A model generated the notes under the pieces. That model worked only from the letters and a program-made list of their open reading frames with translations, was not told the origin of the DNA and did not search any database. A stretch of DNA of 46,714 nucleotides from Thermoanaerobaculales bacterium (GTDB lineage Bacteria > Acidobacteriota > Thermoanaerobaculia > Thermoanaerobaculales > Sulfomarinibacteraceae), in the NCBI GenBank assembly GCA_021107705.1, contig JAIOSJ010000090.1, positions 1 through 46,714 of the forward strand. Reading direction: 5' to 3'. Shown piece by piece: positions 1 to 46,013 of this stretch (position 1 is the first letter of the stretch; the number at the start of each line of letters is the position of its first letter). The position numbers were made by a program, and so were the translations under genes.

Positions 1-1950
1 AACCAGCACAACAACGACGATCTGGACCCCCCGTCCGGCAGCGGATTGGTGCTCCACCAGGGCGGAGACTACAGAGTGACTTCGGCCTATTTGGGGCGGG
101 GCGAGGGCGCCGTCAGAAACGTTGACGGCCAGTCCTATACCTCCCCGCCGGACCGCTATCGTGACAATTTCCACTATTTTGCGCCACGCCACATTGAGTG
201 GTACGTCGCGGGAGACAACCTCGAGACCATTGATCAGATCAAGCAGGCCGTGATCGATTACGGAGTGCTCGGGACCTGCATGTGCTACGACGACGCCTTC
301 ATCAACGCCGGCTACGTCCACTACCAGCCCGATTCCTCCGCTTTTGACCCAAACCACGCGGTGGCCATTATCGGCTGGGATGACGACCAGGCGGTTGCCG
401 GCGCCCCGGGTCCGGGCGCGTGGCAGTGCAAGAACAGCTGGGGAGAGGGCTGGGGCCTCGGAGGCTATTTCTGGATTTCCTATTGGGACAAGCACGCCGG
501 GAAACACCCGGAGATGGGCGCCATCGCCTTCCGTGACGTCGGTCCACCCGACTGGGACACCACCTACTCTCACGATTACCACGGATGGCGCGACACCTAT
601 ACGGATGCCGGCCGAGCCTTCAGTGCCTTCACCACACACGGCGATGAGGTCCTAGAGGCCGTCGGCATCATTACGACCGAGGACGAAACCAGCTACACCG
701 TCCAGGTATGGGACCGATTCGAGGGTGGTGAGCTGCTCGACCTCCTGGGTTCGACCACGGGCAGTTTTGCCCATACTGGACTCCACACAGTCGATCTACC
801 AACTCCGGTTTCTCTCGTGGAGGACGACCAATTCTTCGTCGAATTCGAGGTTTTGAGTGGGGGTCTGGCCTTCGACCGAACCTCAGACGTCCCGGTCCTT
901 CTGGGGGCCAAGAGCAGGACAACCGTCGAAAGCACGGCCGCGCCCGGTGAAACTTTCGTTCGCACGGGTTCTGAGTGGGTCGATTTTACGACCATCGAGG
1001 AGACCGGGAATATCTGCATCAAGGCCCTGACCTCGACTCCGGGTCTGTGGGTTCTGGAGTCGCATGGCATCGTCGCATCCGGCCCGGTCGGAGGGCCCTT
1101 CGAGCCTTCGACCGTCCAGTACACACTGGAGAACCGTGACCCAACTGCCATCACCTACGATGTCACGCTGGACCGGCCCACCTCTTGGATCACCCTGAAC
1201 GGGCCGGTCTCGGGATCGCTCGAACCGGGATCGACGGTCGTCATTACGGTGGAGGTCAACAGCGCTGCCGATGCGCTGGAGGCCGGGGCCTACGCCACGC
1301 AGGTTCTGTTCAACAACGCGACCAACCACCTGGGCGACACCAGTCGAATGATCGTCGTGGCCGTCGGGGATCCCGAAGTCCGACATTTCGAAACACTTGA
1401 CGGCGACCCCGATTGGACGACCGAGGGGCAGTGGGCCTGGGGGCAGCCCGCGGGCCTCGGCGGCGACCACGGCGGTCCCGACCCGACCGGCGGCTTCACC
1501 GACCTGACGGTTTACGGCTACAACCTGGACGGCGATTACCCCAACAACTTGTCGGAGACCCATCTGACCAGTACGGCCTTCGATTGCAGTGGCCTGTACG
1601 GCGTTCGCCTACGCTTCCGCCGGTGGCTCGGGGTTGAACAACCGGATTATGATCACGCCTCGGTCCGAGTCAGTTCTGACGGAACCACCTGGACCACCGT
1701 GTGGGAGAACGATACCGGGGTCGAGGACACGGATTGGGTCCTCGTCAACATCGACATCTCGAGCGTCGCCGACAATGCCGAGACCCTCTACCTACGCTGG
1801 ACCATGGGCGCCACCGATTCCGGATGGACCTACTGCGGCTGGAACATCGACGATGTCGAGATCCTCGGCGTCCCCGAAGTGGGCCGGAGCCTATTTTCGG
1901 ACGGTTTTGAAAACGGCGACACTTCCGGGTGGTCGGTTACGGCCCCATGA
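1..1950 (+). CDS. Papain-like (C1) secreted cysteine peptidase with C-terminal extension, 5'-truncated by window edge
   Basis: Frame is open from base 1 (NQHNNDDLDPPSGSGLVLHQGGDYRVTSAYLGR), so the gene starts upstream. C1 signature around the His/Asn sites (DPNHAVAIIGWDDD ... WQCKNSWGEGWGLGGYFWISY). Ends LFSDGFENGDTSGWSVTAP*. Confidence 0.85.
   Translation, partial: NQHNNDDLDPPSGSGLVLHQGGDYRVTSAYLGRGEGAVRNVDGQSYTSPPDRYRDNFHYFAPRHIEWYVAGDNLETIDQIKQAVIDYGVLGTCMCYDDAFINAGYVHYQPDSSAFDPNHAVAIIGWDDDQAVAGAPGPGAWQCKNSWGEGWGLGGYFWISYWDKHAGKHPEMGAIAFRDVGPPDWDTTYSHDYHGWRDTYTDAGRAFSAFTTHGDEVLEAVGIITTEDETSYTVQVWDRFEGGELLDLLGSTTGSFAHTGLHTVDLPTPVSLVEDDQFFVEFEVLSGGLAFDRTSDVPVLLGAKSRTTVESTAAPGETFVRTGSEWVDFTTIEETGNICIKALTSTPGLWVLESHGIVASGPVGGPFEPSTVQYTLENRDPTAITYDVTLDRPTSWITLNGPVSGSLEPGSTVVITVEVNSAADALEAGAYATQVLFNNATNHLGDTSRMIVVAVGDPEVRHFETLDGDPDWTTEGQWAWGQPAGLGGDHGGPDPTGGFTDLTVYGYNLDGDYPNNLSETHLTSTAFDCSGLYGVRLRFRRWLGVEQPDYDHASVRVSSDGTTWTTVWENDTGVEDTDWVLVNIDISSVADNAETLYLRWTMGATDSGWTYCGWNIDDVEILGVPEVGRSLFSDGFENGDTSGWSVTAP
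1891..1950 (+). other. C-terminal 19-aa motif LFSDGFENGDTSGWSVTAP-stop
   Basis: Same motif and same distance to the stop as at 17216-17275 and 42341-42400. Confidence 0.75.
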
Positions 1951-17366: not shown

Positions 17367-18566
17367 TCAAAGTAATTGGGAGAAGAGAGTGCGAAACGGG
17401 GTGACGACGGGTCGTTCATATGAGAATACATCGCTGTCGACGTAATCAGCAGTGACGACCACCTGAAAAGCGTGCGGGCAATCGAGCTGATCCCTGAAAT
17501 AGGCCAGGGAGGGAGAAAGCCGGGTGTTACTGTGCTTTGCTTCGACGAGGAACCAGGGCTGCCCGTCGCGTACCACGAGAAAATCCACTTCGCGCTTCTG
17601 TTTGTCCCGCACGTAGAAAAGCTCGAACTCGCCAAGTCCCTGATCAGTCCATCCCTCGACCGCCTTCAGCAAATGGCACGCACACAGAGTTTCCGCCCGC
17701 CCACCGACATCTTCGATACCGGACCAGTCCCTGAGGAACCACTTGGGCTCTTTGCGCAGGGACCTGGAAACGTTCTTGTACCAGGGCCGTACCAGGAAGC
17801 CGAAGTGAAGCGAGGCCAGGGTCGCAATCCAGGAGCGGATGGTGTTCTCGCTGACGCGTACGGCACGTGCAAGCGAGGAATATACGAGTTGCTGACCGCT
17901 TCTTTGGGCGAGCAACCGTCCGAGCATAGCGAGTTGGTCGATCTGCTGAACTCGGGTCAAGTCACGAACATCTTCCCTGAAGAGTTGGGTCATTCGAGAC
18001 CGCTGCCAGCGGCGCGAGAAACGCGGATCACGGGTCACAAAGGGCTCGGGATAGCCACCGTGCACCAGAAGAGCGTTCCAGTCCTCAGTCTGAATTGGCG
18101 CCGGCGGGGAAACGGGGCCTTCGCTGGGTTCAGGACGAATCAATTCAGCCAAACTAAAGGGGTGCATGCGAAAACTGAAGTACCGCCCCATCAAGCTGTC
18201 ACCGCCACGCCGATAAACCTCGAGCCTTGACGAGCCTGTCACGATGATGCGGACGCGGGCCTCATAGGTATCGAAGAACCCCTTGAGGAAAGACTTCCAG
18301 CGATGGTATTTGTGAAGCTCGTCGAGGGCCAGAATGATGGGCCCGCTCGACACCTGGTCCAAACCGGCATAGGTTGCGACGGACACTGGGCCCTTGAGGA
18401 TGATCTCGCGGTGATCCTCGTTGTCCCAATCTAGGTAGACCTCGCTGAGATCGGAGCACGTGGTCGTCTTTCCAACCTGCCGCGGACCACTGACAAAGGC
18501 CATCTGGCGGTGCGCGGAGAGATGATCGGAAAGAATGCGTCGGTACAGACGCGCCCGGTTGTTCAT
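17367..18566 (-). CDS. AAA ATPase with DUF4143 (PD-(D/E)XK-like) C-terminal domain
   Basis: Walker A SGPRQVGKTT, Walker B IILALDELHK, VTGSSRLEVYRRGGDSLMGRYFSFRMHPFSLAEL; C-terminal EVDFLVVRDGQPWFLVEAKHS. Confidence 0.9.
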   Translation of the reverse strand: MNNRARLYRRILSDHLSAHRQMAFVSGPRQVGKTTTCSDLSEVYLDWDNEDHREIILKGPVSVATYAGLDQVSSGPIILALDELHKYHRWKSFLKGFFDTYEARVRIIVTGSSRLEVYRRGGDSLMGRYFSFRMHPFSLAELIRPEPSEGPVSPPAPIQTEDWNALLVHGGYPEPFVTRDPRFSRRWQRSRMTQLFREDVRDLTRVQQIDQLAMLGRLLAQRSGQQLVYSSLARAVRVSENTIRSWIATLASLHFGFLVRPWYKNVSRSLRKEPKWFLRDWSGIEDVGGRAETLCACHLLKAVEGWTDQGLGEFELFYVRDKQKREVDFLVVRDGQPWFLVEAKHSNTRLSPSLAYFRDQLDCPHAFQVVVTADYVDSDVFSYERPVVTPFRTLFSQLL

Positions 18567-18572
18567 GGGACC

Positions 18573-18600
18573 ATTATGAATACTATTGCGGAATAGTCAA
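18573..18600 (-). promoter_or_regulatory. Sigma70-like leaderless promoter of DUF4143 ATPase #1
   Basis: Minus strand TTGACT-N16-CATAAT-N6-ATG (-35 at 18595-18600, -10 at 18573-18578, ATG at 18566). Confidence 0.6.
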
Positions 18601-18632
18601 GACCATTCCGCAGTATACCTCGGAATGGTCTT
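18599..18632. promoter_or_regulatory. Perfect inverted-repeat operator candidate
   Basis: AAGACCATTCCG-CAGTATACCT-CGGAATGGTCTT; a third half-site CGGAATAGTC at 18589-18598. Confidence 0.6.
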
Positions 18633-44715: not shown

Positions 44716-45978
44716 TCAAGGCCCCCCGAGCAGCAGGCCCAACGGAAGGTTGTAGACTTTCTCCGTGAGGCGTTCGACCCTTGGGGCGAGAGAGATCACG
44801 GCGCCGCAATCCGCGGCGTCTTTTTCTCCGTCGATAAACGAGTGCAGCGCAGTGAAATCACTCCTTCGAGGTGCGGCGGAATGCTTGATTTCAATTGGTG
44901 TCAAGCGCCCGGCGAAGGGCAAAACGAGGTCGCACTCGAGTCCTCGCTGTGTTCGCCAGAACCGTGCGTCCCAAAATCGGCCTATATGGCCATGGAGTTT
45001 GCGGATCTCCATGATGACGAAGGACTCGAAGAGATGACCGAAGTGGGGAGCGTTCAGCAGGGCACGACCATCACGAATCGCCTGCAGATGGAGCCCCAGG
45101 CCACTATCTGCGAAGAGCCACTTTGGGCGCCTCACCAGACGTTTTGTGACCGTTGCGTGATGAGCGGGAATCTGCACGATTTGGTAGCTCGTCTCGAGCA
45201 GGCTCAACCAGTGGTCGATCGTTTTGTGGGTCACCCCCAGGATGCGTCCGACCTCGGTCTTGTTGATCACCGTGCCCGTTCGCCCCGCACAGAGCACGAC
45301 GAAACGGTCAAAAAGTCCGAGATCGCCAACTTGACTGAGATCGCGGATGTCACGCTGCACATAGGTTCGACGGTAACTCTCAAGCCACGGCGCCGCCCCA
45401 TTCCAGAGGGCGACTGATGGATATCCCCCAGCAAGCATGGAGGGGATCACATCATCCCGGTCGTTGCACGGATATTCCTGGCCGAGCATCGAATTGAGCA
45501 GCGAAGGGTCTGCCAGAAGATCGACGGTCAGTTCTGCCCTCTTGACGTCGGAGTCCCGAATTTCTTGAACCGCAAAGGGCCAGAGGTCCAACACTGCGGC
45601 CCGGCCTGCGAGGGACTCGGTGACCTTCTTCATCACTGGGAAGTGTTGGCTGCCGGAAAGAAAATATCGAAATTCCCCCGGATGACGATCGATTTCCCGT
45701 TTCAGGTAGGGAAAGAGATCCGGGACATGTTGCACTTCATCGAGGAACAGCCGTCCCGGGTGGTTTGCGAAGAAGAGGTCGGGGTCTCTCCGGAATTCGT
45801 CGATTTCCGAGGGAGTGTCGAATGACACGATCTCCATCTCGTCAGCGAAGATCTCTGCAGCCAATTGGGTGAGCAGCCAGGTTTTTCCTGCCTGGCGGGG
45901 ACCTGTGACCAGGACTGCCCCAAATGTGCCGCTCAGATCCCGAATGTGGCTTTCGATGAATCGTCGACGGTAGTTCAT
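44716..45978 (-). CDS. AAA ATPase with DUF4143 (PD-(D/E)XK-like) C-terminal domain
   Basis: Start at MNYRRRFIESHIRDL; Walker A TGPRQAGKTW; Walker B RLFLDEVQH; C-terminal RGLECDLVLPFAGRLTPIEIKHSA. Confidence 0.9.
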   Translation of the reverse strand: MNYRRRFIESHIRDLSGTFGAVLVTGPRQAGKTWLLTQLAAEIFADEMEIVSFDTPSEIDEFRRDPDLFFANHPGRLFLDEVQHVPDLFPYLKREIDRHPGEFRYFLSGSQHFPVMKKVTESLAGRAAVLDLWPFAVQEIRDSDVKRAELTVDLLADPSLLNSMLGQEYPCNDRDDVIPSMLAGGYPSVALWNGAAPWLESYRRTYVQRDIRDLSQVGDLGLFDRFVVLCAGRTGTVINKTEVGRILGVTHKTIDHWLSLLETSYQIVQIPAHHATVTKRLVRRPKWLFADSGLGLHLQAIRDGRALLNAPHFGHLFESFVIMEIRKLHGHIGRFWDARFWRTQRGLECDLVLPFAGRLTPIEIKHSAAPRRSDFTALHSFIDGEKDAADCGAVISLAPRVERLTEKVYNLPLGLLLGGP

Positions 45979-45981
45979 ATG

Positions 45982-46013
45982 TGCATTATGGTAGAGAGAC
46001 TCCCATAATGCAA
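45982..46013 (-). promoter_or_regulatory. Leaderless promoter overlapped by perfect inverted repeat (DUF4143 ATPase #2)
   Basis: TGCATTATGG-N11-CCATAATGCA (45982-45991/46003-46012); minus strand TTGCAT-N17-CATAAT-N6-ATG. Confidence 0.6.

What the first reader, a model, noticed from the sequence alone, without database searches (positions are those of the whole stretch)
18567..18632. DUF4143 ATPase #1: leaderless promoter embedded in three palindromic half-sites
On the minus strand TTGACT-N16-CATAAT sits 6 nt before ATGAAC with no Shine-Dalgarno. Three copies of GAC(C/T)ATTCCG lie around the -35: a perfect 12-bp inverted repeat (AAGACCATTCCG-N10-CGGAATGGTCTT), and a third half-site between -35 and -10 separated by 2 nt in opposite orientation. 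This looks like a tightly repressed or autoregulated gene whose product is an ATPase fused to a PD-(D/E)XK-like fold.
Basis: partly seen in the sequence, partly recalled or inferred. Interest (0 to 1): 0.62.

Follow-up and report, generated by a model that had tools for sequence, protein, structure and literature searches.

The report
Defence-type ATPase gene with built-in operator
A widespread bacterial gene suspected of fighting viruses starts directly at a promoter wrapped in four mirror-image DNA sites, and evolutionary evidence says the gene's own protein reads those sites to control itself, with a readable amino-acid-to-DNA code.

Summary
The gene (window 18566..17367, minus strand; AAA_14 + DUF4143, PADLOC candidate defence family PDC-S01) has four half-sites, not three. 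They form a 62-bp dyad centred on the -35 box (H1> <H2 H3> <H4). H4 overlaps the -10 box and ends 2 nt before the ATG. In 85 of 86 orthologues from many phyla the same array sits in fixed register to the start codon, while flanking DNA is unrelated. Opposite arms covary symmetrically (z = 9.8). The dyad occurs only twice in the 4.3-Mb genome: here and before a 42%-identical paralogue.

Of 399 protein columns, the three that covary best with operator bases are E240, N241 and S245. They are positions 1, 2 and 6 of the recognition helix of a winged helix in a confident AlphaFold model. D241 goes with ..ACG sites (53/54) and N241 with ..GC(A) sites (17/17). The rule held in loci fetched later.

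Best reading: the ATPase-nuclease binds and autoregulates (probably represses) its own leaderless promoter. Different operators at the same position, and leaderless-type promoters, occur across the wider DUF4143 family. Start-site position, binding and the direction of regulation remain untested at the bench.

The parts
18621..18630 (-). half-site H1, GACCATTCCG (operator offset -31..-22)
   Evidence: GACCATT core conserved in orthologues at offset -31..-25
18601..18610 (+). half-site H2 (reads GACCATTCCG on +)
18589..18598 (-). half-site H3, GACTATTCCG, sharing GACT with the -35 box
   Evidence: conserved at offset +24..+30 in orthologues
18569..18630 (.). complete 62-bp dyad-symmetric operator, centre between 18599 and 18600
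18595..18600 (-). -35 box TTGACT
   Evidence: TGAC nearly invariant in orthologues
18573..18578 (-). -10 box CATAAT, 16-nt spacer, 6 nt before ATG (leaderless start inferred)
   Evidence: consensus ATAAT at +22..+26 in orthologues
17367..18566 (-). AAA_14 ATPase - winged helix - PD-(D/E)XK protein (DUF4143; PADLOC PDC-S01), 399 aa
18462..18488 (-). Walker A GPRQVGKTT (residues 27-35)
   Evidence: G27, R29, Q30, V31, G32, T34 invariant in 69 sequences; P28, K33, T35 nearly so
17811..17849 (-). recognition helix of the winged helix (residues 240-252); E240, N241, S245 covary with the operator
17535..17591 (-). PD-(D/E)XK-type motif E326-x-D328 ... E342-A-K344
   Evidence: E326, D328, E342 invariant, K344 at least 90% conserved in 69 sequences
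45982..46012 (-). second DUF4143 gene of the window (44734-45978, -): inverted repeat TGCATTATGG-N11-CCATAATGCA, enclosing CATAAT 6 nt before its ATG
   Evidence: L181

Best explanation
The sequence is an autogenous operator-promoter. The DUF4143 protein, a AAA-type ATPase with a winged helix and a PD-(D/E)XK domain, binds the four half-sites through its own recognition helix. Four subunits (or two dimers) would cover the -35 and -10 boxes and the start of the message and so hold the gene at a low, self-limited level. RNA polymerase starts at or next to the A of the ATG, giving a leaderless mRNA. When the protein is titrated away or changes state (nucleotide binding, foreign DNA), the promoter opens. 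Shown by sequence evidence: the operator's anatomy, its conservation, its dyad covariation, and its coupling to recognition-helix residues. Inferred: direct binding, leaderless transcription. Inferred with less certainty: repression rather than activation, and the inducing signal.
For: Four half-sites in fixed register to the ATG (+33 to about +38 from the dyad centre) in 85/86 orthologues, 57-97% identical to the query, from Planctomycetes, Verrucomicrobia, Spirochaetes, Gammaproteobacteria, Acidobacteria and others. Half-site cores are 96-100% identical to those of the close relatives L054-L056, against 85-90% at fourfold sites and 19-35% in the flank just upstream; in more distant pairs cores are 83-87% against 43-60% at fourfold sites. 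Arms covary: offsets 8-15, 438/584 complementary against 320 +/- 12 on permuting partners, maximum of 2000 permutations 363. Protein-DNA covariation: of 399 columns, the top three by APC-corrected mutual information with operator offsets 8-13 are 240, 245, 241, the first turns of recognition helix 240-252 in a model of mean pLDDT 91.7. D241 with ACG-type 53/54, N241 with GC-type 17/17. L098 changed to N241 inside a D241 clade, with all four half-sites changed to TTTTGCC or close to it. Later-fetched tests agree: a Rhabdochlamydia plasmid gene (N; GCA in all four sites); L221 and L239 (D/R; TCGTA). The paralogue L014, with N241, carries GCA sites. The dyad with up to 2 mismatches occurs at only two places in the genome: here and before L014.
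Against: No binding, transcription-start or expression data for this gene. The tree-corrected tests have little power: all three supported independent pairs in which residue 241 differs go the right way, none the other, but fewer than 6 pairs cannot reach p = 0.05. Residues 14 and 67, outside the helix, also score high. About half of the wider-family representatives show no significant inverted repeat.
Confidence: 0.83

Rival explanations
1. Self-control as in restriction-modification C proteins: the upstream pair (H1/H2) activates by contacting RNA polymerase, the promoter pair (H3/H4) represses at higher level, giving delayed then limited expression after transfer to a new host.
For: Same logic of two tandem palindromes, the second overlapping the promoter, and a leaderless gene; C.Csp231I has OL/OR inverted repeats, a leaderless transcript and both positive and negative self-control (PMC4824078). 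The gene is spread across phyla with its operator.
Against: The -35 TTGACT is near consensus in most orthologues, so the promoter may not need an activator. Many other DUF4143 genes seem to have a single inverted repeat over the promoter.
Confidence: 0.3
2. The sites bind a separate host regulator, and the gene belongs to its regulon.
For: Palindromic operators in general serve many regulators; no binding data exist.
Against: No regulon: only two dyads in 4.3 Mb, both before genes of this family. The operator follows the protein across phyla, not the host, and tracks recognition-helix residues.
Confidence: 0.06
3. The repeats act as an RNA hairpin (attenuator or protein-binding leader).
For: Inverted repeats could fold if transcribed from an upstream promoter.
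Against: They lie upstream of the inferred start. Mismatched pairs between H2 and H3 show little G-T over A-C excess (73 against 61), as expected for DNA rather than RNA. They overlap -35 and -10.
Confidence: 0.04
4. The array is primarily a DNA target or end used by the ATPase-nuclease for mobility or self/non-self marking, with regulation secondary.
For: Intact nuclease-type motif; patchy cross-phylum distribution; conservation begins sharply at H1.
Against: L024-L026 sit between the same neighbouring genes in three genomes and L027/L028 are co-linear, so no recent movement is seen. No matching array marks the 3' side of the gene in the window. No orphan sites in the genome.
Confidence: 0.08

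Closest known systems
PADLOC PDC-S01 (candidate single-gene phage defence; AAA_14 + DUF4143)
   Same: Profile match E 1.8e-51; ATPase fused to a PD-(D/E)XK domain, as described for PDC-S01 in PMC12988326.
   Different: I found no description of its regulation: one paper in the library names DUF4143 and the three naming PDC-S01 (two looked into) are surveys or list it. Antiviral activity is unproven.
Controller (C) proteins of type II restriction-modification systems
   Same: Tandem palindromes upstream of and over a leaderless promoter; autogenous control (PMC4824078).
   Different: C proteins are separate regulators beside R and M genes; here the winged helix is inside the ATPase-nuclease itself, no R-M genes were seen among the neighbours scanned, and spacing differs (32-bp period).
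AAA+ proteins with a C-terminal winged helix (Orc1/Cdc6, RuvB)
   Same: Best fold matches of the model.
   Different: Overall TM-scores are only about 0.3, so this is shared topology; those proteins lack the PD-(D/E)XK domain and act at origins or junctions (general knowledge).
Thermus thermophilus TT_P0211 (AAA_14/DUF4143)
   Same: DUF4143 gene on pTT27; the only DUF4143-type gene seen in the stretch read (TT_RS11170) has TTGTCT-N17-TATCAT 6 nt before the ATG and GAATGA-CTA-TCATTC over the -10.
   Different: Distant subfamily. RNA reported 6.6-fold higher in plasmid-bearing wild type, only when TtAgo is present (PMC4406477); the cause is unknown. The link between locus tags TT_P0211 and TT_RS11170 is inferred from position and domains.

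Membership tests
AAA_14-DUF4143 / PADLOC PDC-S01 | profile match over ATPase and C-terminal part | tested here: met
AAA_14-DUF4143 / PADLOC PDC-S01 | Walker A and PD-(D/E)XK-type residues intact | tested here: met
AAA_14-DUF4143 / PADLOC PDC-S01 | antiviral activity | not testable with these tools
   unproven in the literature too
Autogenously controlled DNA-binding protein | DNA-binding fold in the product | tested here: met
   winged helix, recognition helix 240-252, mean pLDDT 91.7
Autogenously controlled DNA-binding protein | operator at its own promoter, conserved and coupled to the recognition residues | tested here: met
Autogenously controlled DNA-binding protein | binding and change of expression shown by experiment | not testable with these tools
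R-M C-protein system | separate small Xre-type controller with adjacent R and M genes | tested here: not met
   AAA_14/DUF4143 only, and none of the five neighbouring proteins scanned is a restriction or methylase gene; not every window ORF was scanned
R-M C-protein system | two tandem palindromes at a leaderless promoter | tested here: met
   leaderless start inferred from the -10 to ATG distance
Leaderless gene | start of transcription at or next to the start codon | tested here: inconclusive
   -10 ends 6 nt before ATG, spacing conserved, no 5'-end mapping

The most novel reading that the evidence does not exclude
AAA_14-DUF4143 (PDC-S01) proteins, reported among the commonest candidate defence genes of prokaryotes, are as a class one-protein circuits: ATPase, nuclease and their own transcription factor in one chain. 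Each would be shut by its private leaderless operator, read by a short recognition-helix code, and opened when foreign DNA or a change of nucleotide state pulls the protein off.
Probability: 0.45. Interest if true: 0.8.

Novelty: new variant of a known kind. Interest (0 to 1): 0.64.

Why it matters
A 2026 survey calls PDC-S01 the fourth most common defence across prokaryotes (about 29,500 in bacteria and 10,000 in archaea) with validation pending (PMC12988326). This work gives what looks like the first concrete, testable property of the family: the protein reads its own promoter, through identifiable residues. That makes binding, de-repression and signal sensing directly measurable with a reporter. 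It may help to explain why cloning such genes on plasmids could mislead (silent unless triggered), gives a handle to find inducers, and gives a way to correct start-codon annotation.

Tried and rejected
Chance palindrome: rejected by conservation in orthologues. Regulon in the genome: a relaxed search found only this gene and one paralogue with two mismatches or fewer. Mobile unit with sharp ends: the first look suggested it (conservation begins at H1), but three relatives keep the same neighbours and only the spacer differs. RNA hairpin: little G-T excess. Phage carriage: a scan of viral contigs found no relative; plasmid relatives exist, all under 60% identity. Solved relatives: none by sequence. 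NCBIfam: no real match. treekit independent-pairs test: right direction but too few supported pairs to be significant. Paper searches for AAA_14, COG1373 and for autoregulated ATPase-nucleases gave nothing on this family's regulation.

Full report
OBSERVATION. The minus-strand sequence before the start at 18566 is AAGACCATTCCG AGGTATACTG CGGAATGGTC TT GACTATTCCG CAATAGTATTCATAATGGTCCC ATG. The inverted repeat, the third half-site, TTGACT-N16-CATAAT and the missing Shine-Dalgarno are all as described. A fourth half-site, AATGGTC, overlaps the -10 box and ends 2 nt before the ATG. With it the array is a 62-bp dyad: H1 at -31..-25, H2 at -8..-2, H3 at +1..+7, H4 at +24..+30 (cores), centred in the -35 box. 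Copies in the same orientation are 32 bp apart, about three helical turns.

GENE. The product (399 aa) matches Pfam AAA_14 and DUF4143 and PADLOC PDC-S01. Most Walker A residues and the E-x-D...E-x-K motif are invariant or nearly so in 69 aligned sequences. AlphaFold2 gives a confident model (mean pLDDT 91.7) with an ATPase domain, a three-helix winged helix (209-221, 229-236, 240-252 plus strands) and an alpha/beta C-terminal domain. PDB fold matches are AAA+ proteins such as RuvB, RFC and Orc1/Cdc6, at low TM-score. No solved relative is found by sequence.

CONSERVATION. Orthologues were taken from relatives of the genome and from GTDB genomes. Anchored on the dyad, 85 of 86 show the array with the start codon at +33 to about +38; the one failure, L074, has no recognisable site. 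Half-site cores are 96-100% identical to those of L054-L056, while fourfold sites are 85-90% and upstream flanks 19-35% identical; more distant pairs keep 83-87% in the cores against 43-60% at fourfold sites. Neighbouring genes show that L024-L026 lie at the same place, so the spacers have been replaced around a kept operator.

SYMMETRY. In 73 non-redundant sequences, offsets 8-15 of the two inner arms are complementary in 438 of 584 cells against 320 +/- 12 when whole arms are permuted among sequences (maximum 363 of 2000; z = 9.8). The cores (z 4.2) and outer pair (z 3.6) also exceed permutation. Permutation does not remove relatedness. Several different letter sets are symmetric within one operator: TTACGAT, CCGCAGT, CCACGAC, TTGCCAC.

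WHO READS IT. Mutual information with average-product correction between every protein column and operator bases puts residues 240, 245 and 241 first, second and third when summed over offsets 8-13. Parsimony co-change on a tree built without the HTH columns ranks 241, 245 and 240 at 2, 10 and 11 of 399; most of those ranked between them changed only once or twice on the tree. In the model these residues are positions 1, 2 and 6 of the recognition helix. The pairing is nearly exclusive: D241 with ACG-type sites 53/54, N241 with GC-type sites 17/17 (naive Fisher 1.7e-15, not corrected for descent). On the careful tree the operator type changes 6 times and N241 5 times; the supported independent pairs go 3 the same way, 0 the other, 1 without a difference in residue 241. 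L098 (Ereboglobus) is an isolated N241 among D241 neighbours, and its four half-sites read TTTTGCC or close to it. Paralogues L014, L035, L036 and L045, about 36-42% identical, have N241 and GCA-containing sites. Sequences fetched after the rule was seen agree: a Rhabdochlamydia plasmid gene (PNTVKK; TGCA in all four sites) and, with D/R, L221 and the 40%-identical L239 (TCGTA). L222, L223 and L226 agree in at least one arm. A further class with an HR-type helix (L034, L240, L233, L241, L237) has TTTGCTT-type sites.

PRIVATE SITE. The core dyad GGAATRGTC-NN-GACYATTCC with up to two mismatches occurs twice in 4.3 Mb: here and before the paralogue L014; six further places have three mismatches. 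The genome holds about 20 DUF4143 genes, and several others (L019, L016, L017, the window's second gene) have unrelated inverted repeats in the same position.

FAMILY-WIDE. In 35 DUF4143-type genes below 50% identity, 49% have a significant inverted repeat within 70 nt of the start against 9% of control ORFs; 46% have a -35/-10 pair ending 2-10 nt before the start against 3.6%; 9% have a Shine-Dalgarno-like motif against 19%. Control starts were taken mechanically, which lowers the control figures somewhat, and the start rule for the test genes was chosen without looking upstream.

MECHANISM. Shown: anatomy, conservation, coupling to the helix. Inferred: the protein binds as two dimers or a tetramer, covers both promoter boxes and limits its own synthesis from a leaderless transcript. 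Repression is favoured because H3 and H4 cover -35 and -10; activation from H1/H2, as in C proteins (PMC4824078), remains open. A possible outside hint of inducibility: RNA of a distant relative, TT_P0211 of T. thermophilus, was 6.6-fold higher in plasmid-bearing wild-type cells, only with TtAgo (PMC4406477); the gene I take to be the same one has a leaderless-type promoter with an inverted repeat over the -10.

NOVELTY. Autogenous operators and leaderless controllers are known. I found no description of either for DUF4143/PDC-S01 in the held library, which lacks most subscription papers and all preprints. Hence a new variant of a known kind: an ATPase-nuclease that appears to be its own regulator.

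Noticed in passing
window 44734-46012 (-), L181: Second DUF4143 gene, with TGCATTATGG-N11-CCATAATGCA around a CATAAT 6 nt before ATG: same architecture, different letters.
   Followed up: partly
L014 (G000 contig C422:3883-3902): 42%-identical paralogue with nearly the same dyad (1 mismatch); cross-regulation between the two is possible.
   Followed up: partly
L024-L026, spacers on both sides of the gene: Same neighbouring genes in three genomes, but intergenic DNA replaced, with 'GCGAAG.. TTTGCGCCTTTGCG'-like repetitive sequence.
   Followed up: no
L218 (NZ_CP075588.1), ORF at 1510: Annotated start of the ATP-binding protein lies about 16 codons downstream of the ATG that follows the operator; likely mis-annotated start.
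   Followed up: yes
L217 (NZ_CP104165.1) 1495-2517: Orthologue in Candidatus Bandiella is split into two annotated genes with a degenerate operator: probably a pseudogene.
   Followed up: partly
G108, G110: Genomes with 33-34 DUF4143 hits each: strong expansion of the family.
   Followed up: no
L219, TT_RS11170 of T. thermophilus pTT27: DUF4143 gene (taken to be TT_P0211) with TTGTCT-N17-TATCAT 6 nt before ATG and GAATGA-CTA-TCATTC over the -10; TT_P0211 RNA was reported raised by plasmid presence.
   Followed up: partly
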